Source: Candidatus Kaiserbacteria bacterium
GTDB lineage: Bacteria > Patescibacteriota > Minisyncoccia > Phycocordibacterales > UBA2100
Length of the DNA stretch: 33,816 bases
NCBI GenBank assembly: GCA_016204805.1
Contig: JACQKA010000022.1
Span: 1 to 33,816, forward strand
Reading direction: 5' to 3'
Below the pieces are notes generated by a model. The model had not been told where the DNA came from, made no database searches, and was given only the letters and a program-made list of their open reading frames with translations. A program made the position numbers and the translations under genes. Below are positions 2,465 through 30,390 of the stretch, in pieces; positions within the stretch are counted from its first letter, which is position 1; each line of letters begins with the position of its first letter.

Positions 2465-2494
2465 CCCGCACCAGTACGCTATTGGCAGTGCGGG
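2465..2494 (+). terminator. Hairpin after RNase J
   Basis: A perfect 7-bp stem CCCGCAC/GTGCGGG with a 16-nt loop starts eight bases after the RNase J stop. It has no U-tract, so intrinsic termination is uncertain; it may only protect the 3' end. Confidence 0.35.
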
Positions 2495-2496
2495 AA

Positions 2497-2502
2497 TATG
2501 CT
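2497..2502 (+). promoter_or_regulatory. -10 box of a leaderless-type promoter
   Basis: TATGCT lies 5 nt before ATG 2508, and no SD is present. This fits the TANNNT-N5-7-ATG pattern seen at many flanking genes in this window. Confidence 0.45.
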
Positions 2503-2507
2503 AATCT

Positions 2508-4271
2508 ATGGAAATGAAACAAGGCGCCCCAACCCCTTCGCGTAAACCCATGGGGGGGAAACTGTCGCTTGCCATGGCGGCCCTCGCCGGAGCGATGGCA
2601 GCCGGGAATCCTGCCGTCGCAGCTCCCCCAGATACGACCTTTGAGGTGCAAAAAACTAGCGAAGAAATAGGACTTGAAACCGAACTGAAAAATTTACTGG
2701 AAAAAGATCCGATTGCGTTTATTGAACGCGCCAAACAACTTGGCAAGAAAGTTCCTTTCGTCAGTCTGTTACGTGCGAATATTAAGGCGCCCCTGCTTGT
2801 GTTGAATAATCTTGATCATTTTGAACTCGAAGCGTCTGAAGAAGCTACCGTTATCCGAAGCATGGTCGAAAGCATGGATGTGGTCTCGGCGGCACAATGG
2901 TTGAGCACTCATCCGGACAAGCTGGAACGAATGAGGAAGAATGCTGAATATTGGTTAGAGAATTTCCGCTTTGATTGGCAAAAAGAAGAGTACGAGACAA
3001 TCGCTCATTTCCCTTCACCAGCCGCAGCGCAGTTGATGCTCGCCTTTTATCTCAAACATGGCGGTAAAGCCGTGACATGGCTTAACACGACCGATCATGT
3101 TGAAGAATTTGAAACCGCTACTAAACTACTTGAAAAGTATCCTTTCATCGCCGAGCATGTTAATGGAGCGGACTCTCATTTTGATAAAAGTGCTTTTACG
3201 AAAACAGCTCGGAATTTGGTGAACATAGAACACGTTTTGATGCGAACAAGCAGGGATATGGAGGCGGCTATCAAAGCACGCAAAGAGGAGGGTGCGGGCA
3301 TTGCCGATACTACCTCGCTATGGGCGAACAAATTCAATGCCAAGAATCCTCTCCTTCTTGCAAAATATGCTGTTTTGATCGCGCGCGATATAGCGTTGCG
3401 TGGCGTATCTGCAGACTCGGCCGAAGAAGTACAAAAGTCCTTGGTGCGAATCGAGGCGGGACAGAGGGAAGCGCAAAAAATGGATATTCTGAAGGGAAGA
3501 GACCTGTTTGTCTTTATGTCCGGCGATAGCGATATGGAGACAAAAAACGACGAGAAGACACGAGTCCACCAACTGCATGATCAGAACGCTGCCAATGTCT
3601 ATGAACGAATATGGAAAGAGAAGAATCCGACAGGATTCAAAATTGAAAAGCTGGCCGTGCCTTTCGACGAGCAGGGGAATGTGGCCAATGCGGACATTAA
3701 AAAAACAAAAAGGGCGCTTCTTGAGTATGTGGAGGGTGGTGGGAATCCGCGCGTTGTGCTTATCGAAGCACATGGAGGAAGAGAATCGATCGGCATATAC
3801 AAAGATCCAGTGAAAGATACGGGAGAATTTGGAGATGGAATTATTACTCCCACAGAGTTCGTGGCTGCGCACAAGAAACGGGTGCAAGACTCTACGGTGG
3901 CTCAAAACTATGCTACCGGCAAGCGGGACGTCTATCTTTTTTCCCAATGCCTCTCTTCCGACTTCGCCAGAAACGTGTTTGCGCTCCTCCAAAAGGAGAA
4001 ACTCCCTATACCGATTATTATTGCGTCCGCTGAAGTTGGAGCCTCTGCCCAATTCTTGCCACCAAGCGCACACCCAGGGGGAAGGTCTGAATTCACTGAC
4101 GCACTCGCGAGTCGTTTAGAACAGGGGCTCGATTCCGTCGTTGAGCAAGCACTTACCTTTACTCCTGACGGAATAGATTCTCCAATTATTATTTTCATTC
4201 CGGACGCGGAAGGACGACCGCTACAAGTAACCGAGCCTACGAACATCAAGAGAGATACGGACCACGCTTAA
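2508..4271 (+). CDS. Secreted protein with a putative caspase-like (clan CD) cysteine peptidase domain
   Basis: This is a 587-aa protein of unknown role. Residues ~18-39 form a signal peptide: Lys18, an Ala-rich hydrophobic stretch, then a PAVAA cleavage site, so export is likely. The middle is helical and unrecognised. Residues ~330-540 look like a caspase-haemoglobinase fold: a strand LFVFMSGDSD, then VVLIEAHGG with His422, then about 59 residues later DVYLFSQCLSS with Cys481. A hydrophobic strand before HG and another before Cys is the clan CD signature (caspases, legumains, gingipains). Overall similarity to any named family is low, so peptidase activity is an inference. No partner gene adjoins it. 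The base composition appears more AT-rich than RNase J, which may point to a separate history. Confidence 0.5.
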   Translation: MEMKQGAPTPSRKPMGGKLSLAMAALAGAMAAGNPAVAAPPDTTFEVQKTSEEIGLETELKNLLEKDPIAFIERAKQLGKKVPFVSLLRANIKAPLLVLNNLDHFELEASEEATVIRSMVESMDVVSAAQWLSTHPDKLERMRKNAEYWLENFRFDWQKEEYETIAHFPSPAAAQLMLAFYLKHGGKAVTWLNTTDHVEEFETATKLLEKYPFIAEHVNGADSHFDKSAFTKTARNLVNIEHVLMRTSRDMEAAIKARKEEGAGIADTTSLWANKFNAKNPLLLAKYAVLIARDIALRGVSADSAEEVQKSLVRIEAGQREAQKMDILKGRDLFVFMSGDSDMETKNDEKTRVHQLHDQNAANVYERIWKEKNPTGFKIEKLAVPFDEQGNVANADIKKTKRALLEYVEGGGNPRVVLIEAHGGRESIGIYKDPVKDTGEFGDGIITPTEFVAAHKKRVQDSTVAQNYATGKRDVYLFSQCLSSDFARNVFALLQKEKLPIPIIIASAEVGASAQFLPPSAHPGGRSEFTDALASRLEQGLDSVVEQALTFTPDGIDSPIIIFIPDAEGRPLQVTEPTNIKRDTDHA

Positions 4272-4304: not shown

Positions 4305-4333
4305 TTGACGGAAAAATTATATTATTGTAGTAT
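4305..4333 (+). promoter_or_regulatory. Promoter of the 49-codon gene
   Basis: The -35 box TTGACG (4305-4310), a 17-bp spacer and the -10 box TAGTAT (4328-4333; a TATAAT overlaps at 4331-4336) lie about 30 nt before ATG 4364. Confidence 0.6.
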
Positions 4334-4363: not shown

Positions 4364-4513
4364 ATGAAATATCCAAACTGGGTCAGTGCTTTGATCAACC
4401 CTATATCGCGTACGTACAAGATGTGGCGCTTGCGTCGTGATCTCCGCGCCATCTGGCGTGAACACGATCGCACATGGGAACAAAATGGGACATGGAGGTG
4501 TCCCCGGCACTAA
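4364..4513 (+). CDS. Small basic tryptophan-rich protein, unknown (49 aa)
   Basis: A 49-codon frame starts MKYPNWVSALINP and ends TWRCPRH. It contains five Trp and many Arg residues and no clear membrane segment or known domain. Support that it is a real gene: a promoter at 4305-4333, an SD-like GAGGT eight bases before the ATG, and a strong intrinsic terminator 19 nt after the stop. It is therefore a complete, self-contained transcription unit. The sequence is too short to recognise; the helical basic middle (RLRRDLRAIWREH) could bind nucleic acid or membrane, which is speculation. A structured RNA that merely contains this frame is the main alternative. Confidence 0.6.
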   Translation: MKYPNWVSALINPISRTYKMWRLRRDLRAIWREHDRTWEQNGTWRCPRH

Positions 4514-4532
4514 TAGCCACCGACAATGTTTG

Positions 4533-4562
4533 CGCCCCGCCTGAAACAGGCGGGGCGTTTTT
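4533..4562 (+). terminator. Intrinsic terminator of the 49-codon gene
   Basis: A perfect 11-bp GC-rich stem (CGCCCCGCCTG/CAGGCGGGGCG) with an AAA loop is followed by TTTTT. Confidence 0.9.
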
Positions 4563-15187: not shown

Positions 15188-17383
15188 ATGAACGGACATG
15201 TAGCACGGCTTTCCAGGGAGAATCAGCTCCTGATGTACGAAATCATGTATAAAGGGCGTACCATTGATGAAAAGATCAGTGAGAGCGTCAAGACCTCTGA
15301 CGGGCTCATCCCGACGGGAGGTTTTGTCACGATCGGAGAAGAAGCAGTTTCTGCAGGCGCCGCTATGGCGCTTAATCCGAAACTTGATTGGGTCGGTATG
15401 CAGCATCGCTGTAAACCTGGATATATCCGATTCGGCGTTACGCCGTACGAAGACTTTATGAATCAAGGATGTCGGAAAGAATCTTCGACCGGCGGCAGAG
15501 ATGGGACAGTGCATTATGCATTCGTCCATCGTCATGTGCTCAAGTTCATTAGCCACATGGGTGCTCAAGTGGGAGCCGCATGCGGAGTCGTCGAAGGCCT
15601 GCGCTATCTGTATGATCTTGAGAAACGGGAAGGAGAGCTTCCGGTCTGCCAGGTGTATTTTGGAGATGGCGCCGCGCAACAGGGTATCATCCATGAGGCG
15701 ATGAACTATGCAGCCACGCGCAATCTTCCGGTCATCTTTGTGATAGACAACAATCACATCTCGACCGTGACGCGTGCGGACGGAGAATACGCAGGAAGGC
15801 ATTTATTTCCCCGCGCTCTTGGTTACAACATCGGCTGGCGGTATGTGGAAAACGGCAACGATGTTGTCGCTGTCTACAACGCTGCATATGAACTGGTTGA
15901 GCGTGCGCGCAGCATTGCCCGCTGTGGTCCCGGAGAATCGGGTCCCACCAAAGGTGAGGTGCGTGCGCCGGCAATTCTCGAATGCAACACATTCCGCTGG
16001 TCGGCTCATAACGAGTCGTTCATGCTACAGGATGTGGATCTCGACGAATGGCGCGAATGGCGCGCTCGCGATCCGGTCCGTATGTATCGCAATTTCCTGC
16101 TCGAGCTTCGCAGTGTCGAAGCGCTTAAGAAGGTAACCAGCAGAGAACCGCGAGCCATGCGTCTAGTGGAAGATCGTGAATTCAGCGAGGAAGAAATCAT
16201 CGCCATTGAAAAACGTGTGAAGGCGGAGGTTGAAGAGGCCTACGCGAAAGCGAAGGCGATGGAAAACCCCGATCCCAAAAAAGATGGGCTCGGCGACGTG
16301 TACCCCCCGACCGTGATCGTAAAAAAGGAGCGCATTGTCGAGCCGCTCCGAGCAGGTCTCCGTACGAGTTTCTCGAACGAAGAGTTGAAAAGCAAGCGGT
16401 CGTTTATGCGGTCGCTCCAAGATGTCATCAGGGAAACTCTGCGCGCTGACAAACGAGTACGCTATTTCGGAGAAGATGTCCGCGGACACGGCAACCATAT
16501 GGGAGGGGTGTCAGGCAAAACGCTCCTTGCGATCAAGGATCCGGATATTCTTGAAGAGCAGGTGTTTAACACACCACTCTCTGAGATGGCGATCATTGGC
16601 TCTGCGATCGGCCAGTCCTTGGTCGGGATCAAGCCGATCGCTGAAATTCAATATATGCCGTTCATGTCGGTTGGGATCTCGCAATTGACTGATTACGCTG
16701 CGACTCATTATTACACGACTCATACCCCCATTCAAGCAATGTTCACGATGCAATATGGCGGTCCCGCAGGCGGCGACTTCCATAGCAACACACGGCTTGA
16801 GGCGACACTCTTTCATACGCCAGGCATCAAGATGGTCGATCCGTCGACTCCGGCTGATGTGGCTGGACTTTTCAGGTCAGCTATGAAAACGCAAGCGCCA
16901 GTCATCTTTAAGACGAACGTCTGGGCATTCTCGCGCATCTATGGAGATCCCGCACCTGATGGATATGAAGTTCAGATCGGCATACCAGCACTTCGCAAGG
17001 AAGGTACGGATCTTACCATTATTACGTGGGGTCCGAGAATGCTCTTTGACGTAGTCGCTCCGGCAATAACGCGTCTTGAAGCGGAGGGACATTCGATCGA
17101 ACTCATTGAGCTTCGTTCTATCCAACCGTATGACCTCGAGTTCCTCGTGGATTCGGTGAGGCGCACGCGACGAGCTCTGGTTGTGCATCAGGATGTGGAG
17201 ATGGGTGGCGTTGGTGAATCAATTGCCTCCGCGATCACGAAAGATGCGAACTTCGATATGCGCGCAATCTCATACGGAGCCGCATATACTCCCACGCCCC
17301 AGCATCCAAATCTGGAACAGTATTTCCTGCCCTCAGCTGATGGCGTGTACAAGCACTCTATGAGGCTGCTCAAACATTGGTAA
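15188..17383 (+). CDS. Branched-chain-type 2-oxoacid dehydrogenase E1, fused alpha and beta subunits
   Basis: E1 decarboxylates a 2-oxoacid with thiamine diphosphate and passes the acyl group to lipoyl. Residues 1-~330 are the alpha part: GGFVTIGEEAVSAGAAMAL, HRCKPGYIRFG, and the ThDP motif running from GDG (159-161) to DNN (~187). Residues ~395-731 are the beta part: FGEDVRGHGNHMGG, FNTPLSEMAIIGSAIG, IAEIQYMPF, MQYGGPAGGDFHSN, and the closing VVHQDVEMGGVGESIAS. Such fusions are known for 2-oxoisovalerate dehydrogenases; two separate genes are the rule elsewhere. Length 731 aa is normal for a fusion. It heads the plus-strand set with the lipoyl protein and E2. Branched-chain oxoacids are the likely substrates, but pyruvate or other oxoacids are not excluded. 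Confidence 0.9.
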   Translation: MNGHVARLSRENQLLMYEIMYKGRTIDEKISESVKTSDGLIPTGGFVTIGEEAVSAGAAMALNPKLDWVGMQHRCKPGYIRFGVTPYEDFMNQGCRKESSTGGRDGTVHYAFVHRHVLKFISHMGAQVGAACGVVEGLRYLYDLEKREGELPVCQVYFGDGAAQQGIIHEAMNYAATRNLPVIFVIDNNHISTVTRADGEYAGRHLFPRALGYNIGWRYVENGNDVVAVYNAAYELVERARSIARCGPGESGPTKGEVRAPAILECNTFRWSAHNESFMLQDVDLDEWREWRARDPVRMYRNFLLELRSVEALKKVTSREPRAMRLVEDREFSEEEIIAIEKRVKAEVEEAYAKAKAMENPDPKKDGLGDVYPPTVIVKKERIVEPLRAGLRTSFSNEELKSKRSFMRSLQDVIRETLRADKRVRYFGEDVRGHGNHMGGVSGKTLLAIKDPDILEEQVFNTPLSEMAIIGSAIGQSLVGIKPIAEIQYMPFMSVGISQLTDYAATHYYTTHTPIQAMFTMQYGGPAGGDFHSNTRLEATLFHTPGIKMVDPSTPADVAGLFRSAMKTQAPVIFKTNVWAFSRIYGDPAPDGYEVQIGIPALRKEGTDLTIITWGPRMLFDVVAPAITRLEAEGHSIELIELRSIQPYDLEFLVDSVRRTRRALVVHQDVEMGGVGESIASAITKDANFDMRAISYGAAYTPTPQHPNLEQYFLPSADGVYKHSMRLLKHW

Positions 17384-17390
17384 AGGAACA

Positions 17391-17421
17391 GCCGCCCGCG
17401 ATATACCGCGGGCGGTTTTTT
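17391..17421 (+). terminator. Intrinsic terminator after E1
   Basis: CCGCCCGCG/CGCGGGCGG stem with a 6-nt loop followed by TTTTTT. It separates E1 from the lipoyl/E2 genes, which have their own promoter. Confidence 0.9.
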
Positions 17422-17427
17422 GCGATA

Positions 17428-17456
17428 TTGACAAATCATATAAAAAGTAAGATGGT
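17428..17456 (+). promoter_or_regulatory. Promoter of the lipoyl protein-E2 operon
   Basis: A consensus TTGACA (17428-17433), a 17-bp spacer and GATGGT (17451-17456) lie 32 nt before ATG 17489. The -10 is weak against TATAAT but fits the NNNGGT pattern of this island. Confidence 0.45.
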
Positions 17457-17488
17457 GAGTGACAGGATCTTTAAGAAAAGAGGACGAC

Positions 17489-17764
17489 ATGAAAATCGCG
17501 ATCACCGTTCCTATCTCGTATGAAGTGCAGGAGGCGACCGTCGAGAAATGGTATAAGAAAATCGGCGACTCCATAGTAGCGGGCGATTCACTGCTCGATT
17601 GCGCCACCGAGAAAGTTGTCATCGAAATTCCGGCCCCTGCAGACGGCGTGCTTTTGGAGATCATAGCGAAAGACGGTGAGTCAGTCTTTCGCCCGGAGCA
17701 CGCGCCCACCACAGGCAACTGGGACGCCACGGTCGGCTATATGGAAACGGGTAACACGCCATGA
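17489..17764 (+). CDS. Free-standing lipoyl carrier protein
   Basis: A 91-aa protein consisting of one biotinyl/lipoyl attachment domain. The attachment lysine is Lys42 in DCATEKVVIEIPAP, with the typical Glu before it and ADGVLLEI after it; this hairpin context (EKV, not MKM) indicates lipoylation rather than biotinylation. Start 17489 has AGAGGA upstream and begins the fold (MKIAITVPIS); a GTG 30 nt earlier is unlikely. Its stop overlaps the E2 start as ATGA. In most organisms this domain is the N-terminus of E2; here it is a separate protein, presumably shuttling acyl groups between E1 and the E2 catalytic domain. Confidence 0.88.
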   Translation: MKIAITVPISYEVQEATVEKWYKKIGDSIVAGDSLLDCATEKVVIEIPAPADGVLLEIIAKDGESVFRPEHAPTTGNWDATVGYMETGNTP

Positions 17765-18591
17765 CTGGAATGGCTTCCGCATCGCACCCGCCGGGAACAC
17801 TTATACTCAAACCCTCGCAAGAATTGTTGAGAAAAGCGCACGGTCTTGAAGGACTGAACAACCGACTCACCTATACCACTAAAGAGAGGCGAGTCGTCGT
17901 TGCCGGTGGCGAACCGATTGCATACAATCTGTATAAACTCCTCGCATTCAAAAAGGAGCTCGACTATCGGTTTCAAGAAGTATTACACGTACGTGTGCGG
18001 CCATGGATGTTTGTTGCGCTTGCCGTAGCGCGCGTGCTGACGCGAGATGCATTCGCAACATTGAACGGCTACTGGAACACGCATGATACTGACCAGAAAT
18101 ATGACAGCGTTGCGCTGTATGCATCCGTCCATCTCGGGTTCTCGTACGACCGTGGCACTCCACCGCGCATTGATAGAGAGCAGAGAACGATCGGCGAAGG
18201 GACTCCCGGTTTGCGGATTCTCACACTGCGCGACGCGCACATGAAATCATGCGCAGAATTTCTTGCTTCGCTCGATGATCTGCTCAAGAGAGCAGATCTT
18301 GATACACGGAAAGGAACGCGTATCAAAGACACAAAGCTTGAAGAGTGGACGGGCGCGACTTTCATATTCAACAATATCGGGGCGTTGCGCCACGCGCGCG
18401 GCTGGTCAATCCTGTCACCGCATATATCCGCGCTTATGAATATGGGACACATTGCCCCTGACGGTACAGCCACGTTCCAGATCTTTTTCGACCATCGGAT
18501 GTGTGACGGCTCGCTAGTGACTGCGTTTACGGACGCTGTATATGAGGAGCTCGGGCGCGTGCTCACGGAAGTGAACGCGCTCATCGCGTAG
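17761..18591 (+). CDS. 2-oxoacid dehydrogenase E2 acyltransferase, catalytic domain only
   Basis: This 276-aa protein transfers an acyl group from lipoyl to CoA. The catalytic signature HRMCDG (His245, Asp249) is intact, as is the preceding NIGALRHARGWSILSPH region that shapes the active site. It starts directly with a divergent N-terminal part (residues ~1-60) and has neither a lipoyl domain nor a recognisable E1/E3-binding domain, so how the complex is held together is unclear. The gene overlaps the lipoyl gene by ATGA, so the pair together replaces a normal E2. A strong terminator follows. The divergent sequence leaves the exact acyl specificity open. Confidence 0.85.
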   Translation: MTGMASASHPPGTLILKPSQELLRKAHGLEGLNNRLTYTTKERRVVVAGGEPIAYNLYKLLAFKKELDYRFQEVLHVRVRPWMFVALAVARVLTRDAFATLNGYWNTHDTDQKYDSVALYASVHLGFSYDRGTPPRIDREQRTIGEGTPGLRILTLRDAHMKSCAEFLASLDDLLKRADLDTRKGTRIKDTKLEEWTGATFIFNNIGALRHARGWSILSPHISALMNMGHIAPDGTATFQIFFDHRMCDGSLVTAFTDAVYEELGRVLTEVNALIA

Positions 18592-18595
18592 CAAA

Positions 18596-18632
18596 AAAGG
18601 CACCTGCGGAAAACAGGTGCCTTTCCCTTTTT
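18596..18632. terminator. Intrinsic terminator after E2
   Basis: AAAGGCACCTG/CAGGTGCCTTT stem with a 7-nt loop, followed by CCC and TTTTT. Confidence 0.85.
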
Positions 18633-18683
18633 GACCTGCTTTAACCACAAAAAATCGCGCTGACAATAGTGTATATTTTCTGT

Positions 18684-18821
18684 ATGTTCGGACACGATAC
18701 ACAGTTCATCATCGATTTTGATAGCACGCTTGTCTCCCTGGAGACGCTCGACGAACTCGCGAAGATCACGCTCGCAGATGACATCTGGGACAGTTTTGAT
18801 AAGGTAAACGCAGAATCATAG
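18684..18821 (+). pseudogene. serB (HAD phosphoserine phosphatase) remnant, N-terminal 45 codons
   Basis: A 45-codon frame reads FIIDFDSTLVSLETLDELA, which is HAD motif I (DFDST) and the helix after it as found in long SerB-type phosphoserine phosphatases of some bacteria. It then stops after DKVNAES, where such a protein should continue for hundreds of residues; motifs II-IV are absent downstream, where serA begins. The stop TAG overlaps the SD of serA (AGGAGG). It is best read as the surviving 5' end of a deleted serB that once preceded serA. Use as a short leader peptide that couples translation to serA is an alternative. Confidence 0.65.
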
Positions 18822-18832
18822 GAGGCGCCGTA

Positions 18833-20041
18833 ATGAGCAGAGGAACAGTGGTGTTACTCAACACGATCCATGATCGTGCACAAAAAATGTTCGACCAAAA
18901 CGATTACCGCGTAGTGCTGGCATCGACGTCAGCACTCAAGGGCGAGTTACACAGGGAATTGCGTGATGCGGTCGTGCTCGGTATTCGTTCGAGCAATACC
19001 GTAACAGAAGCGATGCTCGAGCAGATGCCGAATCTGCTTGCAATCGGCGCATTTTGCATCGGCACGAACCAGATAGACATAGCCGCATGTTCAAAGCGCG
19101 GCATCGCAGTCTTCAACGATCGACACAGCAGTGCGCGCAGTGTCGCGGAACTTGCGCTCGCATGTATGTTGAATCTGTCGCGCGGCATCGGTGATCACAG
19201 CAAGTCCATGCACGATGGCATCTGGAACAAGCGTGCCAAGGGAGCACACGAGATCCGTGGCAAAAAATTGGGCATCGTGGGCTACGGCAACATCGGTACG
19301 CAATTATCGGTCATGGCAGAAGGTCTCGGTATGCAGGTGTATTTCTACGATGTTGCTGATAAGCTTGCGCTCGGCAATGCACGCAAATGTGCGTCTCTTG
19401 TTGAGTTACTTTCGACAGTTGATGTCGTCAGCATGCACATTGACGGCCGCGGCGCGAATAAGAAAATTATGGGTGAGCAAGAATTCAGTCTGATGAATCG
19501 CGATGCATATTTCATCAACGTAAGCAGAGGAAGTGTTGTTGACGAAATAGCTCTCGCACATGCGCTCATGAGCGGTAGACTTGGCGGCGTCGCGCTCGAT
19601 GTGTTCGAAAAGGAGCCATCTGGTAACGAGGAGTTTGCTTCGCCGCTCAGGAATATGCGGAACGTTATTCTCACGCCGCATATCGGCGGCAGTACGGAAG
19701 AAGCGCAGGAAAACATAGGTGCGTTCGTTGCAGAAAAATTGCGCGCGTATCTCGAAACCGGCTCGACCGCGCTTTCGGTCAACCTACCGCAAGTCACTAT
19801 GCAAGAGATGCACCGACAATACCGCATTACGCACCTACACCGGAATGTGCCGGGTGTCATGGCGAACATCAACGCCCTCTTTGCGCACAGCAAAATAAAC
19901 ATCGAAGCCCAACGTCTGCAAACCGCAGGAGAGTTGGGATACGCAGTCATCGACCTGAATCAACCGTGCGATGCGAGTCTACTGCAGGCACTGCACGATA
20001 TTCCAGAGACCATACGGCTTCGAGAGATCGACAGAGCATAA
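18833..20041 (+). CDS. serA: D-3-phosphoglycerate dehydrogenase (2-hydroxyacid dehydrogenase with ACT domain)
   Basis: SerA oxidises 3-phosphoglycerate in the first step of serine synthesis. Seen in 402 aa: substrate-domain GIRSSNTVTEAML and GAFCIGTNQIDI, the NAD loop VGYGNIGTQ (~148-156), RGSVVDE with the catalytic Arg, FEKEPSG with Glu, and PHIGGSTEEAQ with the catalytic His. A C-terminal ACT domain (HLHRNVPGVMANINALF) is the usual serine-feedback site. AGGAGG lies 7 nt before the ATG. The adjoining serB remnant supports the serine role. Because it sits next to an oxoacid dehydrogenase, action on another 2-hydroxyacid is a weaker alternative. Confidence 0.88.
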   Translation: MSRGTVVLLNTIHDRAQKMFDQNDYRVVLASTSALKGELHRELRDAVVLGIRSSNTVTEAMLEQMPNLLAIGAFCIGTNQIDIAACSKRGIAVFNDRHSSARSVAELALACMLNLSRGIGDHSKSMHDGIWNKRAKGAHEIRGKKLGIVGYGNIGTQLSVMAEGLGMQVYFYDVADKLALGNARKCASLVELLSTVDVVSMHIDGRGANKKIMGEQEFSLMNRDAYFINVSRGSVVDEIALAHALMSGRLGGVALDVFEKEPSGNEEFASPLRNMRNVILTPHIGGSTEEAQENIGAFVAEKLRAYLETGSTALSVNLPQVTMQEMHRQYRITHLHRNVPGVMANINALFAHSKINIEAQRLQTAGELGYAVIDLNQPCDASLLQALHDIPETIRLREIDRA

Positions 20042-20044
20042 AAC

Positions 20045-20070
20045 AAGGGAGGCCAGTGGCCTCCCTTTTT
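20045..20070. terminator. Bidirectional terminator between serA and the acyl-CoA dehydrogenase
   Basis: AAGGGAGGCC-AGT-GGCCTCCCTT with TTTTT on the plus side, at the meeting point of convergent operons. Confidence 0.88.
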
Positions 20071-20075
20071 AATTT

Positions 20076-21212
20076 CTACTTGTCCAGATTCTTTGCAATC
20101 ACCTCGAGCTGGATGTTGTTCGCACCCTCATAGATGAGCGTAGGGAAAATATCCATGAGTCGTGGGAGCCAAGGCATCTCTTGCGTCACTGCCATGCCGC
20201 CAAAATAGGTAGCAAGCTTGCCACCGTATTGCCATGCGATTTCTGTGGCATTTTCCTTCGCTTCCGATGCTATTTTGGTACAGTATTCACCGCGATCGCG
20301 CATTTCTGATGCAGCGAGCACCAGTGTCCACGCCGCTTCCAGCCGCGCATGCGCCTGGGCAAAATCGAGTCTCACTTTCTGATTGTCCCAGACCGCTCTG
20401 TCGAATTGTCTTCGCGTTTTAGTCCACTCAAGAGCGGTGTCGAAGATCCACATCGCCATACCAATCGCCTGCGCGGCGATATTGATGCGCCCGCCATCCA
20501 AGGTCTTCATGGCTATGTCCCAGCCGTCTCCTTGGAGCAGGGTGTCTTCTGGCAGTACCGCATCTGCAAATGATATCTCGCAAAAATCGGAACTTTTCAA
20601 CACACGCTTGGGAAGATAGCGGACATTGACACCCGGATGTTTCAATCCTGGCGCTGATTCAAGAACAAAAGCGGAAATGTCTCTGAATCCTGTGCGGGCA
20701 AACATCACTGCTACGGACGCGTGCAATGCATTCGTAATGAATGTTTTCGTACCGTTAACTACCCACCCATCTTTTTGGAGATGTGCATGAATTTTCATCG
20801 AACGTGCATCCGAACCCGCATTCGGCTCGGTAAGCGCATAACAGCCGAGGATTTCACCCGAGGCGAGTTTTGGCAGAATCCGTTTTTTCTGTTCCTCACT
20901 ACCCGCATACATAATGGGAAATGCCGCAAGCGAGCTATTCGCTGTCCATATCAGATGAAAAGACGGCCAGTAATAGGCAACTTCGCGTGCAACATACGAT
21001 GCCGCAACGGTGTTCATGCCCATGCCACCATATTGCTCGGGAATCGTGAGCCCGAATAATCCAAGACTGCCCGCTTTCTTCACAGGCTCTGCCGGGAACT
21101 TCCCTTCCTCCTCGTGAGTAGTATAAGCGGGTAGTAGCTCTTCCTCGCCGAATTTGCGGACCGTATCAAGTATCGCCCGCAATGAATCGTCGTGTGGTTC
21201 TGTCCACCGCAT
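20076..21212 (-). CDS. Acyl-CoA dehydrogenase
   Basis: This FAD enzyme introduces a 2,3-double bond into acyl-CoA, passing electrons to ETF. Seen in 378 aa: CYALTEPNAGSDARSM (FAD/substrate), WVVNGTKTFITNA, GRINIAAQAIGMA, RRQFDRAVWDNQKV, and IYEGANNIQ with the catalytic Glu362. The base at this position places it with short/medium-chain and isobutyryl/2-methylacyl-CoA dehydrogenases; isovaleryl-CoA dehydrogenase carries its base in the helix that here reads DGGRIN, with no Glu. So a simple isovaleryl-CoA assignment is doubtful. SD GGGAGA precedes the ATG. It lies downstream of the SDR terminator, so it may have its own promoter. Confidence 0.93.
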   Translation of the reverse strand: MRWTEPHDDSLRAILDTVRKFGEEELLPAYTTHEEEGKFPAEPVKKAGSLGLFGLTIPEQYGGMGMNTVAASYVAREVAYYWPSFHLIWTANSSLAAFPIMYAGSEEQKKRILPKLASGEILGCYALTEPNAGSDARSMKIHAHLQKDGWVVNGTKTFITNALHASVAVMFARTGFRDISAFVLESAPGLKHPGVNVRYLPKRVLKSSDFCEISFADAVLPEDTLLQGDGWDIAMKTLDGGRINIAAQAIGMAMWIFDTALEWTKTRRQFDRAVWDNQKVRLDFAQAHARLEAAWTLVLAASEMRDRGEYCTKIASEAKENATEIAWQYGGKLATYFGGMAVTQEMPWLPRLMDIFPTLIYEGANNIQLEVIAKNLDK

Positions 21213-21249
21213 GCTTTTTCTCCCTTTGTGTCTGATCTTTCTCTAACAT

Positions 21250-21277
21250 AAAAAAAGCCCCCGCGCGAGCGCGGGGG
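21250..21277 (-). terminator. Terminator after the SDR gene
   Basis: CCCCCGCG-CGAG-CGCGGGGG stem followed on the minus strand by a U-run. The 20-nt hairpin is identical to the one at 22187-22206. Confidence 0.88.
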
Positions 21278-21292
21278 ATTCTACTGAGAGTT

Positions 21293-22114
21293 TTAACTTA
21301 CCAAGTAACCGCCATCAACAGGCAGGCAGGCACCGTTTATGGCACTCGCTTCTTTGCTTGCCAGCCATAGTACGGTCTGAGCAATTTCCGCCGGCTGTAT
21401 TTTTCTCCTTTGTGGATTCCGTGCGAGGTACGACGCCAATGCCGCATCAGAAAGGTCAGTGGTCATCGGTGTTTCTACGATACCAGGGGCCACCGCATTC
21501 ACGGTGATATCCAAAGCGGGTTCATCGCGGTTTTTGTTAAACGGCGCTTCACAAGCAAGGGTCTTGGTCAGAGAAAGTACCGCGGCTTTTGATGCCGCAT
21601 ATGCGAGATTGCCTACGTCTCCCTTAAGTCCCTCCACCGAGGCAATATTTACAATCCTGCCGTATCCGGCCCTGCGCATGTATGGTAATACCGCATGACA
21701 ACAGTGCAGTGTTCCCCAAAAGTTCACGTCCATCACACGGCGCATGGAAAGAAAATTCTGCTCCGTTACTTTTGCCAGAGTCTGCATGGCATCCTTGGGC
21801 ATAATGCCAGCCGCATTTACTAAAACACTGATGCCCCCGCAGTCCGATGCTATGGATTGTAAACCATCGCTCACCGCTGCAAGATCAGTAACATCCAAAT
21901 CCCATGTTTTGATTTCACAATTAACATTCCGGGTACTCAGTGGAAAAAGGTCATGAAGTTCTCGATGCAGTTCTTTCAACTGCACGTATGCCTTCGTATG
22001 ATCGAGAAGGGTGATGTATAATGCGTCGCTACCGTATGTAGCGACAAATTGCTCCGCTATCGCCCTACCAATACCACCCGCAGCACCGGTAATAACGACC
22101 ACCTGTTCCTTCAT
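21293..22114 (-). CDS. Short-chain dehydrogenase/reductase
   Basis: A 273-aa classical SDR: VVITGAAGGIGRAIA (NAD(P) loop), LVNAAGIMP, Ser in IVNIASVEG, YAASK with the catalytic Tyr and Lys, and VAPGIVETPM. Length and motifs match FabG, acetoacetyl-CoA reductase and 3-hydroxybutyrate dehydrogenase. In this context it may interconvert acetoacetate (made by HMG-CoA lyase) and 3-hydroxybutyrate, or act on a 3-hydroxyacyl-CoA; this is inference. AAGGAGA precedes the ATG. A stretch of about 25 residues after GSDALYITLLDH is longer than usual. It has its own promoter (22150-22178) and terminator, so it is a single-gene unit. Confidence 0.88.
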   Translation of the reverse strand: MKEQVVVITGAAGGIGRAIAEQFVATYGSDALYITLLDHTKAYVQLKELHRELHDLFPLSTRNVNCEIKTWDLDVTDLAAVSDGLQSIASDCGGISVLVNAAGIMPKDAMQTLAKVTEQNFLSMRRVMDVNFWGTLHCCHAVLPYMRRAGYGRIVNIASVEGLKGDVGNLAYAASKAAVLSLTKTLACEAPFNKNRDEPALDITVNAVAPGIVETPMTTDLSDAALASYLARNPQRRKIQPAEIAQTVLWLASKEASAINGACLPVDGGYLVS

Positions 22115-22149
22115 TTTTCAGTCTCCTTTCCAAATGCCGATCCCATGAA

Positions 22150-22178
22150 ACCCTACAGCACGGTGGCAACTGCGTCAA
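22150..22178 (-). promoter_or_regulatory. Promoter of the SDR gene
   Basis: Minus strand TTGACG (22173-22178), 17 bp, TAGGGT (22150-22155), about 35 nt before ATG 22114. Confidence 0.6.
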
Positions 22179-22180
22179 AT

Positions 22181-22209
22181 AAAAAGCCCCCGCGCGAGCG
22201 CGGGGGCTT
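22181..22209 (-). terminator. Terminator of the hydratase-carboxyltransferase-lyase operon
   Basis: GCCCCCGCG-CGAG-CGCGGGGGC stem followed on the minus strand by TTTTT; it contains the same 20-nt hairpin as 21258-21277. Confidence 0.88.
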
Positions 22210-22215
22210 CTCCAA

Positions 22216-23106
22216 CTACTTCAAAGATCGTAGATATCGCGATGGAAGCTCGTGTCCAAGCACTGCTTCCATGTACCGCGATGCTTTGACGAGTTTTGCA
22301 ATGTCGATGCCGGTCGTGATGTTACTTTTCGCAAAGCAGTCCACGACATCTTCGGTAGCAACATTGCCGACCGACACGTTGGCGAACGGACAACCGCCCA
22401 ATCCGCCAGCGGAGCTATCGAATGTCCGAATACCGAGGGCATACCCACGCTCGATGTTCGCGAGCGCATTGCCATCAGTATCGTGCATATGAAGTGCAAA
22501 GCAAGATGTGCCGTGCCGTGCGAGTACAACGTCGAGAAGCTGTGACACTTCATCAGGACTCGCTTTGCCGATCGTATCCGCAAGTGACACTTCATAGACG
22601 CCGAGATCAAAGAGTGCGGTTGCAACATCGAGAACTTTCTGTGGATCAACTCGGCCTTCGTACGGACACCACCATGCTGTTGATACGTATCCACGCACCA
22701 CCATGTCAGAGCGCAAGGCACATGCGACAATGCCGCGATATGCCTCGATCGATTCGTCAATGGACTGTCTAATGTTCCGTACGCTGAATGTATCAGATGC
22801 CGCGGCAACAATGGCGATTTCTTTAACGCCCGACGCAAGCGCTCGAACTAATCCTACGCCGTTTGCAACAAGTGCAGAATAGTGCGCGGGTGGGTATGTA
22901 AGTAGTGCCTCACATACCACCTGTGCATCACGCATCTGCGGCACAAGGTCAGGTCGAACAAATGACGTGACCTCGATGTGCCGACACCCCGCATCCACCA
23001 ATTTCTTGATGAACGCTATCTTGTGTTCGGTCGCGATGAAGTCCTCAATATTCTGGAGCCCATCGCGCGGACCGACTTCGACAATGCGAACGTCATTTCG
23101 ATCCAT
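22216..23106 (-). CDS. Hydroxymethylglutaryl-CoA lyase
   Basis: HMG-CoA lyase splits HMG-CoA into acetoacetate and acetyl-CoA, the last specific step of leucine breakdown. Seen in 296 aa: VEVGPRDGLQN with Arg14 and Asp15, metal ligands HMHD (His206, His208), and GGLGGCPFA with the active-site Cys239, followed by NVATEDVV. All catalytic residues are present and length is normal. Its start overlaps the end of the carboxyltransferase gene by 14 nt, so it belongs to the same operon, with the terminator 7 nt after its stop. Related lyases of the DRE-TIM family would lack this Cys block, so confidence in the call is high. Confidence 0.95.
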   Translation of the reverse strand: MDRNDVRIVEVGPRDGLQNIEDFIATEHKIAFIKKLVDAGCRHIEVTSFVRPDLVPQMRDAQVVCEALLTYPPAHYSALVANGVGLVRALASGVKEIAIVAAASDTFSVRNIRQSIDESIEAYRGIVACALRSDMVVRGYVSTAWWCPYEGRVDPQKVLDVATALFDLGVYEVSLADTIGKASPDEVSQLLDVVLARHGTSCFALHMHDTDGNALANIERGYALGIRTFDSSAGGLGGCPFANVSVGNVATEDVVDCFAKSNITTGIDIAKLVKASRYMEAVLGHELPSRYLRSLK

Positions 23107-24799
23107 AGCTCTTCTCCACCAGTGCGGGCCACAGCGTCCAAAGCCCTTGCACGGACTCTGGCTTCTTCATGCCCGAATACGCTGCGTGCAAAAACCACGT
23201 AAGGTACTCGCGGAGTCGTGACAAATTCACGACTTCATCAACGATACCCTGCCTTGCAACATAGTGCGGGCAGGCGCTCTCGCTGTACTTTTCCACGAGT
23301 CCGTTCATTTTCGCAATGACAGAAAGCCGCTCCGTATCATCTGCCGCCTTTTTAAGAGCGCGGCCAAAACAAGCGATTGCAGCGGTTTCTTTGTGCATGA
23401 CCATGACCTCGGTCACTGCAGTTCCGATCGTGAGCGCATTGTTGGACGCCATCGGTCCGCACATTACGTAGTGGCTCGCCGCATGCCCCTTTCGAAGCAC
23501 GACGGTAGCCATTGGAATGTTCGCGCGTTCGATTGCATAGATGAGCGCCTGCCCCAGACCGAGGAGCCCTGCCTTTTCGGCTTGGTCTCCGACGTCGATT
23601 CCCGACGTGTCTTGGAGCCAGATCATCGGCACCTTATTTTCATCGCACCACGAGACGAATTTACACATCTTCACCAAACCCTGCCGGTACAATTTCCCTC
23701 CTATGCCAGGATAATCCGCATACTCGGGATAGCCGCGAGGAAGGAAGCCCTGCCGATTGGCAACTATGCCTGCAGAGAGTCCGTCAACGGATACGACTCC
23801 GCAATACACTTCGGGGCCATATCCTGGCAGATATTCTCTTGATGTACTTCCGTCTACCAGTCGGGCAAGTATATCTTCCGTCTTGTATGTCATTTTTGAA
23901 TCATGAGGTATTAGGTAGTACAGATCCTCACCGTCATATTTTGGAGGGTCTGTGACGTCCCACAGTTCTTGCGGGTCATCTGCACCGCGAGCGGCAATGC
24001 ACGACCTCATGGCTTCGATCACTTCTTTCTCCGTCCCGTGTACACTGTCGAAGAATCCCGTCTGCGTATGAACGGTTGAGCTACCGGGGGGCGGAATCTT
24101 GCTGATCCGTTCCATTTCCTCCAGCAGCGCAGTAACATCCTCTTCGCTAAAACCACTCTTCGAAGACCGCATACCGCTCAAAATCGCCGCGCCGCCGACC
24201 GCCATGCTGGCGTCTGCGTGCGCCAAGCGCTTGGTGGCGGAAATACCGTGATAGCCGCCGCCCGCGGGATTGGTTCCGAAGATGCCCGCGATGATGGGGA
24301 TGCCCTTCGCCGAAAGGCGAGCGTTATTGAAGAATATCTTTCCACCGCTGTCGTGACCAGTGTATACCCGATCCTGTCGTTCAAGATCGAGCCCGCTACA
24401 TTCAAGAAGCCACATGATGGGTGTGTGTAGCAATTCCGCCAACCGCTGTATACGCAGTATCTTTTGGGGTTGGCCGGGAAGCCACGCTCCCTTGCGTAGT
24501 TCAGGATTGGATGCGATGACGCACACGCATTCCCCATGCACTTTTGCCAGTCCAGTGATGACGCCGGTTGCTCCTTCAGGATTGCATTCCGGATCATACA
24601 GACTCCCGAGATCAAGAAACGTTCCAGGGTCAACGAGTAGCGTGATGCGCTCCCGCACGACCCTTTCTTTCCTTGCGCTCTGGGAGTGCCCAAGTACACG
24701 CTCGGTTTCCTTGATACGTGCGGCATTCGTTTCGTTCCGCGTATAGTCACCTGGGGAACATGCTCTTCCCAAGGTCTCTAGTCTGCCGAAATCGCTCAT
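23093..24799 (-). CDS. Biotin-dependent acyl-CoA carboxyltransferase, glutaconyl-CoA decarboxylase alpha-like
   Basis: This 568-aa double-crotonase-fold enzyme moves a carboxyl group between biotin and an enoyl-CoA. Blocks seen include KGAWLPGQPQKILR, CSGLDLERQDRVY, FGTNPAGGGYHGIS, MAVGGAAILSGM, GIGGKLYRQGLVKM, WLQDTSGIDVG and LRKGHAASHYVM. From memory these match glutaconyl-CoA decarboxylase alpha (GcdA) more closely than methylcrotonyl- or propionyl-CoA carboxylase beta. In this operon the likely reaction is 3-methylcrotonyl-CoA to or from 3-methylglutaconyl-CoA. No biotin carboxylase, biotin carrier or membrane decarboxylase subunit is in the window, so the biotin partner must lie elsewhere. 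Its start overlaps the hydratase stop as ATGA. Confidence 0.88.
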   Translation of the reverse strand: MSDFGRLETLGRACSPGDYTRNETNAARIKETERVLGHSQSARKERVVRERITLLVDPGTFLDLGSLYDPECNPEGATGVITGLAKVHGECVCVIASNPELRKGAWLPGQPQKILRIQRLAELLHTPIMWLLECSGLDLERQDRVYTGHDSGGKIFFNNARLSAKGIPIIAGIFGTNPAGGGYHGISATKRLAHADASMAVGGAAILSGMRSSKSGFSEEDVTALLEEMERISKIPPPGSSTVHTQTGFFDSVHGTEKEVIEAMRSCIAARGADDPQELWDVTDPPKYDGEDLYYLIPHDSKMTYKTEDILARLVDGSTSREYLPGYGPEVYCGVVSVDGLSAGIVANRQGFLPRGYPEYADYPGIGGKLYRQGLVKMCKFVSWCDENKVPMIWLQDTSGIDVGDQAEKAGLLGLGQALIYAIERANIPMATVVLRKGHAASHYVMCGPMASNNALTIGTAVTEVMVMHKETAAIACFGRALKKAADDTERLSVIAKMNGLVEKYSESACPHYVARQGIVDEVVNLSRLREYLTWFLHAAYSGMKKPESVQGLWTLWPALVEKSYGSK

Positions 24800-25851
24800 G
24801 ATTTTTCCTCCATCTGTTTGAGCTCGAAGTTAGGGACTCTCTTTTCCAATACCGCTCGGATGCCTTCCGCAAGAAGAGGATGTCGATAGAGCATCGAATC
24901 GCACTTCATCTCTGTGCGGAAAAAATGCTCCTCTTCATACGGGATGCCGTACGCTAGAAACAACGTACGGAGCGCCTGTATTGATTGAGGTGCGAGGGGC
25001 ATTTTCAATTCCGCAATTTCATTCCGAACATCCCCGAGGGGTTTCCCCCACAGATGACTATATGTATGAGGATCGCATCTTCGTGCGACCTCTGCTTCCA
25101 TGTCATCCTCACTCATGAGTATGGTGGGAACGCGAGTTTTGATCTTGCTCAAGGCGAGCTTGAACGCCCGTTGGAACAATGCCGCGAGCATACAGCTACC
25201 GACCACTGCGTCCAAAACACCGATAGCTTTGAGTTCACGTGCGGTTGTTTTTCGTGCTGTCGCAACGAGACAACGCGCATTATGATGCCCTGCCTTGGTA
25301 CTCAATCGCGCGAGACCACCCCATCCAGGGATGAGTCCGATGGTCGCCTCGCTCATGCAGATAGTCGTGCGGGGATCGCCGACCATCTGATCCGCCCAGA
25401 GCGCAATTTCTGCAGACCCGCCGTAATAATCACCGCCGGGAAGTACAGAAATAATGCGTAGGTGTTTTGCGAGCGCGCGTACTCTTTTATAGAGCGCGAA
25501 CGCCGTGAGCAACCGTCGATCCGCCCACCTGTATCCGCGTTTCGTACGCAGACTGGTGAGTGTTTCTTTGAGATCGCCACCGGCGTGTACTGGATCGGGT
25601 GCAAACGAAAAGATGAGGAACGATAATTCCCTCTTTCGCCGCTCGATGAGTTTCAGCTCCGACGCATAGGCGTCTAACACGTGCGTGTCTATTTGATGCA
25701 CCGGCGGATTCTCATAGTGCAGTACCACGCCGCGAGTCCCTTTGAAGGACACGGTGTGTGCGTGTAGCATTTTGAGACCGCCCCATGCCACGGTGCAGGA
25801 ATCCAAAATCTGGGCACCGGTACTTTCAATGGCTTGGCGCAGTTGGTCCAT
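24796..25851 (-). CDS. Enoyl-CoA hydratase/isomerase family protein
   Basis: A 351-aa crotonase-fold protein. FSFAPDPVHAGGDLKE forms the oxyanion-hole loop (AGGDL, 90-94). Both hydratase glutamates are present: Glu148 in YGGSAEIALWAD and Glu168 in CMSEATIGLIPGWGG. The C-terminal third (residues ~250-351) is longer than in ordinary hydratases (~260 aa) and ends LLAEGIRAVLEKRVPNF, recalling both hydratases and hydroxyisobutyryl-CoA hydrolases. In this operon it probably hydrates 3-methylglutaconyl-CoA to HMG-CoA (inference). It is the first gene of the operon, with AGGAAGGA before the ATG and a good promoter. Divergence in the active-site loop (PGGDYYGGS) makes the exact reaction uncertain. Confidence 0.82.
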   Translation of the reverse strand: MDQLRQAIESTGAQILDSCTVAWGGLKMLHAHTVSFKGTRGVVLHYENPPVHQIDTHVLDAYASELKLIERRKRELSFLIFSFAPDPVHAGGDLKETLTSLRTKRGYRWADRRLLTAFALYKRVRALAKHLRIISVLPGGDYYGGSAEIALWADQMVGDPRTTICMSEATIGLIPGWGGLARLSTKAGHHNARCLVATARKTTARELKAIGVLDAVVGSCMLAALFQRAFKLALSKIKTRVPTILMSEDDMEAEVARRCDPHTYSHLWGKPLGDVRNEIAELKMPLAPQSIQALRTLFLAYGIPYEEEHFFRTEMKCDSMLYRHPLLAEGIRAVLEKRVPNFELKQMEEKS

Positions 25852-25893
25852 GCAGTTCCTTCCTCTCTTTATATGTCAAAGCTCCTGTCCGAC

Positions 25894-25922
25894 ACCATAC
25901 AATTCTGAACTGTGTGAGTCAA
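25894..25922 (-). promoter_or_regulatory. Promoter of the hydratase-carboxyltransferase-lyase operon
   Basis: Minus strand TTGACT (25917-25922), 17 bp, TATGGT (25894-25899), 42 nt before ATG 25851. Confidence 0.65.
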
Positions 25923-25924
25923 GG

Positions 25925-25955
25925 AAAAACTCCGGCAGATTTTGCCGGAGTTTTT
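25925..25955. terminator. Bidirectional terminator after the thiolase gene
   Basis: AAAAACTCCGGCA/TGCCGGAGTTTTT stem with a GATTT loop lies just after the thiolase stop (minus strand); its U-run works on both strands. Confidence 0.9.
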
Positions 25956-25957
25956 GT

Positions 25958-27157
25958 TCATGTTCTTTCCAAAAGAACAGCGACCGCCTCGCCGCCGCCG
26001 TTACAGGCGACCGCGACGCCTCTCTTTTTCTTCAGCGCAACAAGCTGGTGTGCGAGCTGGCCCACGATGCGCGTGCCGGTCGCACCCAAGGGATGCCCGA
26101 TCGCGATCGACCCGCCCCACACGTTCATCTTTTCGCGTGGGATGTAGAGCCATCGCATTGCAAAAAGCGGAACGACAGCAAATGCTTCGTTCACTTCGAA
26201 CAGATCAATGTCATCGATCTTAAGACCGCAACTATCAAGAAGTTTCTTGGTTGCGCTCGCCGGCGCTGTTGTATACCAATTCGGCCCATGCGAACAAACC
26301 GCGAAATCGCATATGCGCGCGATTGGTTCGATACCCATGTGGCGAACGGAAGGCTCATCAGCGATAAGAAGCCCCGACGCGCCGTCTGCGATCTGTGCCG
26401 ACGTCGCCGCAGTGATGGTGCCTTTCTTGTCGAATGCTGGCGGCATTTTTTTTATCTTGGTAGCATCCGCCACCCGCAGACCTTCGTCTTTGTATAGGCC
26501 GCTCACTGATGCCATCCACGTATCGAAACAGCCGTCACTGTGCGCATTGTTGGCGCGAGCAAAGCTTTCGATCGCGTACTCTTCCTGCGCTTCGCGCGTG
26601 ATGCCGAAGTGCGCCGCACAATACTCCGCGACAGCGCCCATGTGGGGTCGACCTTCAGCCGACGGTTCGGAAAGTCCATCGTACACCATGCTGTCGTACG
26701 CTTCCCGCGGCGATTCCTTGCCTGATTTGATATAGAGACTGGATAGCGTCTCATCGCCCATACGTTTTGCACCACGCCGGATGAGATAGGGTGCCCTACT
26801 CATGCTCTCCATGCCGCCCGCGATCATGCAGTCGGCCTCGTCGAGCTGGATCATATGAGTCGCGTGTCGTAGCGCCACGAGTGATGACGCGCACACTTTG
26901 TTGAATGTCTCTCCGGGACATGTATGCGGCAAACCGCTCTGTAGCGCCGCATGACGCGCAGGGTTCTGTCCTTCGCCCGCAGTCAAGACCTCGCCCATGA
27001 ACACCCCCTTCACCATATCGAGAGGTAGATTGCTCCTCTCTAATAAAGATCTGATGACCACTGCTCCGAGTTCAGAGCTCGAATGTTCTTTCAACGACCC
27101 GCAGAAACTGCCATGCGCGGTGCGCACGGCATCGCAAATGTACACACTTCGCTTCAT
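25958..27157 (-). CDS. Acetyl-CoA acetyltransferase (thiolase)
   Basis: Thiolase cleaves 3-ketoacyl-CoA, here probably acetoacetyl-CoA, into acetyl-CoA units, or condenses them. The 399-aa length is normal. Seen: NKVCASSL with nucleophile Cys89, EVNEAFA, GGSIAIGHPLGATG with the catalytic His (~356), and VACNGGGEA with the second Cys (~386). The usual CxGGG motif reads CNGGG. GAGGAGA precedes the ATG. The gene has its own promoter and terminator and is not part of the operon downstream of it. If acetoacetate from HMG-CoA lyase is to reach it, a CoA-transferase or ligase would be needed; none is in the window. Confidence 0.93.
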   Translation of the reverse strand: MKRSVYICDAVRTAHGSFCGSLKEHSSSELGAVVIRSLLERSNLPLDMVKGVFMGEVLTAGEGQNPARHAALQSGLPHTCPGETFNKVCASSLVALRHATHMIQLDEADCMIAGGMESMSRAPYLIRRGAKRMGDETLSSLYIKSGKESPREAYDSMVYDGLSEPSAEGRPHMGAVAEYCAAHFGITREAQEEYAIESFARANNAHSDGCFDTWMASVSGLYKDEGLRVADATKIKKMPPAFDKKGTITAATSAQIADGASGLLIADEPSVRHMGIEPIARICDFAVCSHGPNWYTTAPASATKKLLDSCGLKIDDIDLFEVNEAFAVVPLFAMRWLYIPREKMNVWGGSIAIGHPLGATGTRIVGQLAHQLVALKKKRGVAVACNGGGEAVAVLLERT

Positions 27158-30384: not shown

Positions 30385-30390
30385 ATGACT

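What the first reader, a model, noticed from the sequence alone, without database searches (positions are those of the whole stretch)
2508..4271. Secreted caspase-like protein
A signal peptide and a His422/Cys481 pair in strand-HG and strand-C contexts match clan CD peptidases. Secreted caspase-like proteins in a reduced, probably host-attached bacterium could act on host or neighbour proteins. The N-terminal 300 residues are unlike known domains.
Basis: partly seen in the sequence, partly recalled or inferred. Interest (0 to 1): 0.55.

Follow-up and report, generated by a model that had tools for sequence, protein, structure and literature searches.

The report
Exported caspase-like protease of Patescibacteria
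This gene of a tiny-genomed bacterium encodes an exported protein-cutting enzyme with the caspase fold, part of a highly variable and undescribed family in which only the two catalytic residues never change; it is a good new branch of a known kind of protease, with an unknown target.

Summary
The finding holds up. ORF 2508-4271 encodes 587 aa with an N-terminal signal peptide, a helical region of no known family (about 45-325), and a C-terminal clan CD cysteine-peptidase domain. In 31 relatives (11-22% identical to the window protein) the only two invariant columns are H422 and C481. AlphaFold2 gives the caspase-haemoglobinase topology, with His after strand 3 and Cys after strand 4. Foldseek returns caspases-3, -7 and -8. 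The family profile matches the solved GPI transamidase GPI8, family C13, at E 1.4e-6. One relative passes Pfam's Peptidase_C13 cut-off and another nearly reaches C25; the window protein matches nothing on its own. So it is clan CD, nearest C13/GPI8 by sequence, and not a caspase or metacaspase proper. Export is supported by signal segments and by depletion of non-catalytic cysteines, while relatives in another class lack a signal and look cytoplasmic. The gene is a lower-GC accessory gene: the RNase J-MFS junction it occupies is closed in two relatives. Likely role: exported endopeptidase acting at or beyond the cell surface. Substrate, activation and host-directed action are inferred.

The parts
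2508..4271 (+). whole gene, 587 aa exported clan CD peptidase
2508..2627 (+). signal peptide region (residues 1-40; uncharged hydrophobic core 21-32 LAMAALAGAMAA, then NPAVAA; no lipobox). Starting at Met1 (2508) or Met15 (2550) both leave a signal peptide
   Evidence: cleavage site read by eye
2640..3482 (+). helical N-terminal region (residues about 45-325), no known family; low model confidence between 149 and 231
3345..3479 (+). conserved helical pair before the fold (281-298, 305-324), with the family's 'IARN' signature; R293 is Arg in 26 of 31 members
3501..4205 (+). caspase-haemoglobinase fold (residues about 332-566): beta1 332-337, beta2 379-383, beta3 415-420, beta4 475-479, beta5 503-506, beta6 561-565, with helices between
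3771..3776 (+). catalytic H422 and G423 at the end of strand 3 (His 31/31, Gly 28/31)
3948..3950 (+). catalytic C481 at the end of strand 4 (31/31; sole Cys)
4026..4043 (+). S507-A512 (SAEVGA) after strand 5, equivalent of the family's SEYGQ motif and of yeast GPI8 SSEMDES; E509 and G511 kept, Tyr and Gln lost in this copy

Best explanation
The gene encodes a Sec-exported cysteine endopeptidase of clan CD. After signal-peptide removal, a C-terminal caspase-haemoglobinase domain would cleave peptide bonds with the H422/C481 dyad. The variable helical region in front is best read as a pro- or targeting domain that controls access to the active site. The enzyme would act outside the cytoplasm, on surface or surrounding proteins. 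It belongs to an undescribed, fast-diverging and patchily distributed family of small-genome bacteria (Patescibacteria) that sits nearest to C13/GPI8, and in this genome it is an acquired accessory gene. Shown by computation: fold, invariant dyad, family, signal segment, insertion. Inferred: catalysis, pro-domain role, place of action, substrates.
For: Dyad invariant in 31 of 31 members at about 20% identity, and present in three further copies read with TGA=Gly. Six-strand caspase topology with His and Cys at the expected strand ends, core pLDDT above 90 (topology definition from PMC4357240). Foldseek: caspases at probability up to 1.00 and Raptor. Profile to yeast GPI8 chain 9ub7_C, E 1.4e-6, aligning HG, the Cys and the SSE motif. 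Pfam: one relative 24.4 bits against a C13 cut-off of 22.8, another at C25 E 2e-4. Export: 9 of 9 members of the window's lineage and its nearest signal-bearing relatives have a strong hydrophobic N-terminus, against 0 of 21 others; non-catalytic Cys 13 per 6241 residues against 89 per 15430, Mann-Whitney p 0.0015 on total Cys density. Accessory gene: GC 0.45-0.50 against about 0.55 in the flanks, and RNase J-MFS directly adjacent in G003 and G059.
Against: The window protein alone matches no Pfam, NCBIfam or PDB entry. Foldseek E-values are modest (1e-4 to 1e-3) with TM-scores of 0.43-0.59 for the best hit. The window copy lies on a long branch and has lost conserved pocket-like residues (RFG at the first helix; Y and Q of SEYGQ), so its activity or specificity may differ. 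No neighbour gene hints at a substrate. The exported/cytoplasmic grouping was drawn from the trait itself; only the cysteine comparison is a separate measure.
Confidence: 0.75

Rival explanations
1. Envelope maturation enzyme: the exported peptidase processes, or by transpeptidation attaches, the bacterium's own surface proteins, as GPI8 (C13) and PorU (C25) do, rather than attacking others.
For: Nearest solved relative by sequence is GPI transamidase; another member scores near C25; exported.
Against: Rare and patchy (4 of 297 genomes of the order), not expected of a housekeeping sorting enzyme; no conserved partner or substrate gene nearby. No search for a shared C-terminal sorting signal in the genome was made.
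Confidence: 0.12
2. Intracellular stress, death or defence protease (like bacterial metacaspases) whose N-terminus is a membrane anchor, with the catalytic domain on the cytoplasmic side.
For: Homologues in another class lack any N-terminal hydrophobic segment; one family member hits PADLOC 'caspase' at E 6e-5. A relative carries a pair that looks like toxin-antitoxin genes at the same RNase J-MFS junction.
Against: N-terminal positive residues before the segment predict the rest outside; cysteine depletion in signal-bearing members; A-x-A-type site; no defence genes recur nearby.
Confidence: 0.1
3. Inactive pseudopeptidase used as a binding scaffold.
For: Loss of family motifs RFG and SEYGQ in the window copy; long branch.
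Against: Both catalytic residues kept in every member, C481 being the only Cys in the protein.
Confidence: 0.06

Closest known systems
Peptidase family C13 (GPI8/PIGK GPI transamidase; legumain)
   Same: Order of the dyad; HG; Cys at the end of strand 4; a post-strand-5 motif (yeast GPI8 SSEMDESSYSH, family SEYGQxGFSxP); one member above the Pfam cut-off.
   Different: Window protein below detection; about 20% identity within the family; long variable N-terminal helical region; no C-terminal legumain pro-domain; the window copy lacks the family's RFG arginine.
Caspases and bacterial metacaspases/orthocaspases (C14)
   Same: Fold (best Foldseek hits); dyad; some bacterial ones also have N-terminal signal or membrane segments (46 of 671, PMC3501461).
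   Different: No Pfam C14 match for the window; only one member at E 0.017; residue two before the Cys is Ser, not the Asp of basic-specific enzymes nor the Gln of caspases.
Gingipain family C25
   Same: Exported clan CD peptidase; one member at E 2e-4, just below cut-off.
   Different: No C25 architecture; not matched by the window protein.
CHAT/Raptor-like caspase-fold domains
   Same: Fold; Raptor and its complexes among Foldseek hits; a CHAT chain at E 0.23.
   Different: No TPR or partner genes found; weaker match.

Membership tests
Clan CD cysteine peptidases | His then Cys dyad in that order, invariant | tested here: met
   31 of 31 members
Clan CD cysteine peptidases | Caspase-haemoglobinase fold, His at the end of strand 3 and Cys at the end of strand 4 | tested here: met
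   definition. Predicted, not solved
Clan CD cysteine peptidases | Cysteine-dependent peptide bond hydrolysis | not testable with these tools
   needs enzyme assay
Peptidase C13 (legumain/GPI8) | Match to the Pfam Peptidase_C13 model over its cut-off | tested here: not met
   window protein no match; one relative met it
Peptidase C13 (legumain/GPI8) | Sequence homology to a solved C13 enzyme by profile | tested here: met
   family profile to GPI8, E 1.4e-6; holds for the family profile, not for the window sequence alone
Peptidase C13 (legumain/GPI8) | S1 pocket Arg at the start of helix 1 (legumain Arg44) | tested here: inconclusive
   Family has RFG (Arg in 24 of 30); aligned residue in the window is not Arg and the alignment there is unsure
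Caspase/metacaspase C14 | Match to the Pfam C14 model | tested here: not met
Caspase/metacaspase C14 | Asp (metacaspase) or Gln (caspase) two residues before the catalytic Cys | tested here: not met
   S479 in the window; S/G/A/N in most members; the rule itself is and general knowledge
Gingipain C25 | Match to the Pfam C25 model over its cut-off | tested here: not met
   window none; one relative 21.2 against 23 bits

The most novel reading that the evidence does not exclude
An independent clan CD family of the Patescibacteria, in which an enzyme that is cytoplasmic in one class is exported in others and now works at the cell surface, possibly as a GPI8/PorU-like transpeptidase that attaches proteins to the envelope or as a weapon against neighbours.
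Probability: 0.15. Interest if true: 0.75.

Novelty: new variant of a known kind. Interest (0 to 1): 0.52.

Why it matters
Most members of this family are invisible to Pfam and NCBIfam, and literature searches on caspase, metacaspase or C13 in these bacteria returned no paper describing it. An exported, rapidly diverging protease with a hypervariable N-terminus in an ultra-small bacterium is a concrete candidate for interaction with other cells, and it can be tested outside the uncultured organism. The family also shows the same catalytic fold with and without an export signal within one phylum, useful for the history of C13, C14 and C25.

Tried and rejected
Direct searches with the window protein: Pfam and PDB found nothing, which on their own would have looked like an orphan. 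No relatives in phages or plasmids with the window protein, nor in viral contigs with one relative's domain, so a phage origin is not supported. The caspase-only reading was set aside in favour of C13 affinity. Conserved neighbourhood: none. Tree placement of the window copy is unresolved. Matches to Rep3_N, ligase OB and CodY were single-member noise. Two weak phylum hits (G944, G884) were not used. Contig contamination was considered: the adjacent RNase J is 59-70% identical to the full-length copies of relatives, so at least the left end is native.

Full report
OBSERVATION. The ORF at 2508-4271 (+) is real: 587 codons, ATG to TAA. The N-terminus carries a signal peptide: charged start, uncharged hydrophobic core at residues 21-32, then NPAVAA. 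No Pfam match exists for the protein up to E 10 and no PDB sequence match.

RELATIVES. A search of 98 related genomes gave two members in the same GTDB family. Profiles built from them (A2 to A5) found more in the order, class, family and phylum, and in 26 of 288 genomes of another class. The final domain alignment A6 holds 31 sequences at 11-22% identity to the window protein. Its only invariant columns are H422 and C481; G423 is 28/31, A454 28/31, E509 26/31.

FOLD. AlphaFold2 of the domain alone with eight sequences gave pLDDT 77, pTM 0.81. With 29 rows the full-length model has its core above 90. The order of elements is strand 332-337, helix 353-372, strand 379-383, helix 394-409, strand 415-420 then H422, hairpin, helix 448-459, strand 475-479 then C481, helix 483-496, strand 503-506, helices 528-549, strand 561-565. 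This is the six-strand clan CD plan as described in PMC4357240. Foldseek against the PDB gave caspase-3 and -7 first and Raptor lower, and caspases-3, -7 and -8 for most of the top 23 with the full model.

FAMILY. The A6 profile matches yeast GPI transamidase GPI8 (9ub7_C) at E 1.4e-6, aligning HG, the catalytic Cys and SSEMDESSYSH with SEYGQxGFS. One relative passes the Pfam C13 cut-off, another nearly passes C25, one hits C14 weakly and one hits PADLOC caspase at 6e-5. So membership of clan CD is met, C13 is nearest, and formal membership of C13 or C14 is not met by the window protein. The window copy keeps E509 and G511 but departs from the family at RFG (start of helix 1) and at Tyr/Gln of SEYGQ. 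Because legumain uses an Arg at the start of helix 1 and residues in the loop after strand 5 for its S1 pocket, specificity of this copy may have shifted (inference).

EXPORT. All members from the window's class, plus G917, have a strong N-terminal hydrophobic segment; the 21 other full-length members have none. This split was defined by the trait, so the test value is not independent. A separate measure agrees: signal-bearing members are depleted in non-catalytic cysteine (13 in 6241 residues against 89 in 15430; Mann-Whitney p 0.0015 on total Cys density), and in six of nine the catalytic Cys is the only one. Some of these segments may be anchors (G624 and G917 are the most hydrophobic). The tree needs about four changes of the label, so export was probably gained or lost more than once (placements are weakly supported).

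N-TERMINAL REGION. It is helical, of low confidence, in no known family, and not alignable between members except close paralogues. A role as pro-domain or targeting domain is inference, by analogy with gingipain and metacaspase N-termini.

GENE HISTORY. The gene's GC is 0.45-0.50 against about 0.55 in the flanks. RNase J upstream is 58-70% identical in full-length copies of relatives. In G003 and G059 RNase J is directly followed by an MFS gene 31% identical to the one downstream of the window gene; in G001 two small genes that look like a PIN toxin and its antitoxin sit at the same junction (by eye). The gene is therefore an accessory insertion, and the family is rare in the order (4 of 297). 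No neighbour recurs near members in a way that suggests a partner.

JUDGEMENT. Fold and dyad are as well supported as sequence-based methods allow. Activity, substrates and extracellular role are inferred. Bacterial caspase homologues with N-terminal signal or membrane segments are already known (PMC3501461), so the finding is a new variant of a known kind. Its interest lies in the undescribed family, the exported/cytoplasmic split and the direct testability.

Noticed in passing
window 15188-27157: Cluster of E1 dehydrogenase, acyl-CoA dehydrogenase, HMGL-like lyase, carboxyltransferase and thiolase, resembling leucine or branched-chain catabolism, unexpected in a genome of about 0.75 Mb; the carboxyltransferase is absent from six relatives searched.
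   Followed up: partly
window 30385-31872 and 31976-33202: Exported glycosyl hydrolase family 18 protein with a peptidoglycan-binding domain, next to a Mutator-family transposase.
   Followed up: no
window 4364-4513: Small 49-codon ORF downstream of the peptidase gene, behind a promoter-like site (4305-4333) and before a strong terminator (4532-4558).
   Followed up: no
L086 2598-3264 of the reverse complement (G001): The RNase J-MFS junction holds two small genes that look like a PIN toxin and antitoxin in a relative: a possible integration spot.
   Followed up: partly
L037, L051, L052: Family members in genomes that read TGA as glycine.
   Followed up: yes
L080 (G1273) and G1292: Two adjacent copies of the peptidase gene on one contig of G1273 and three copies in G1292: expansion in that class.
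   Followed up: no
window 2490-2510: A TATGCT-like box lies a few bases before the ATG with no clear ribosome-binding site, which could mean leaderless expression.
   Followed up: no
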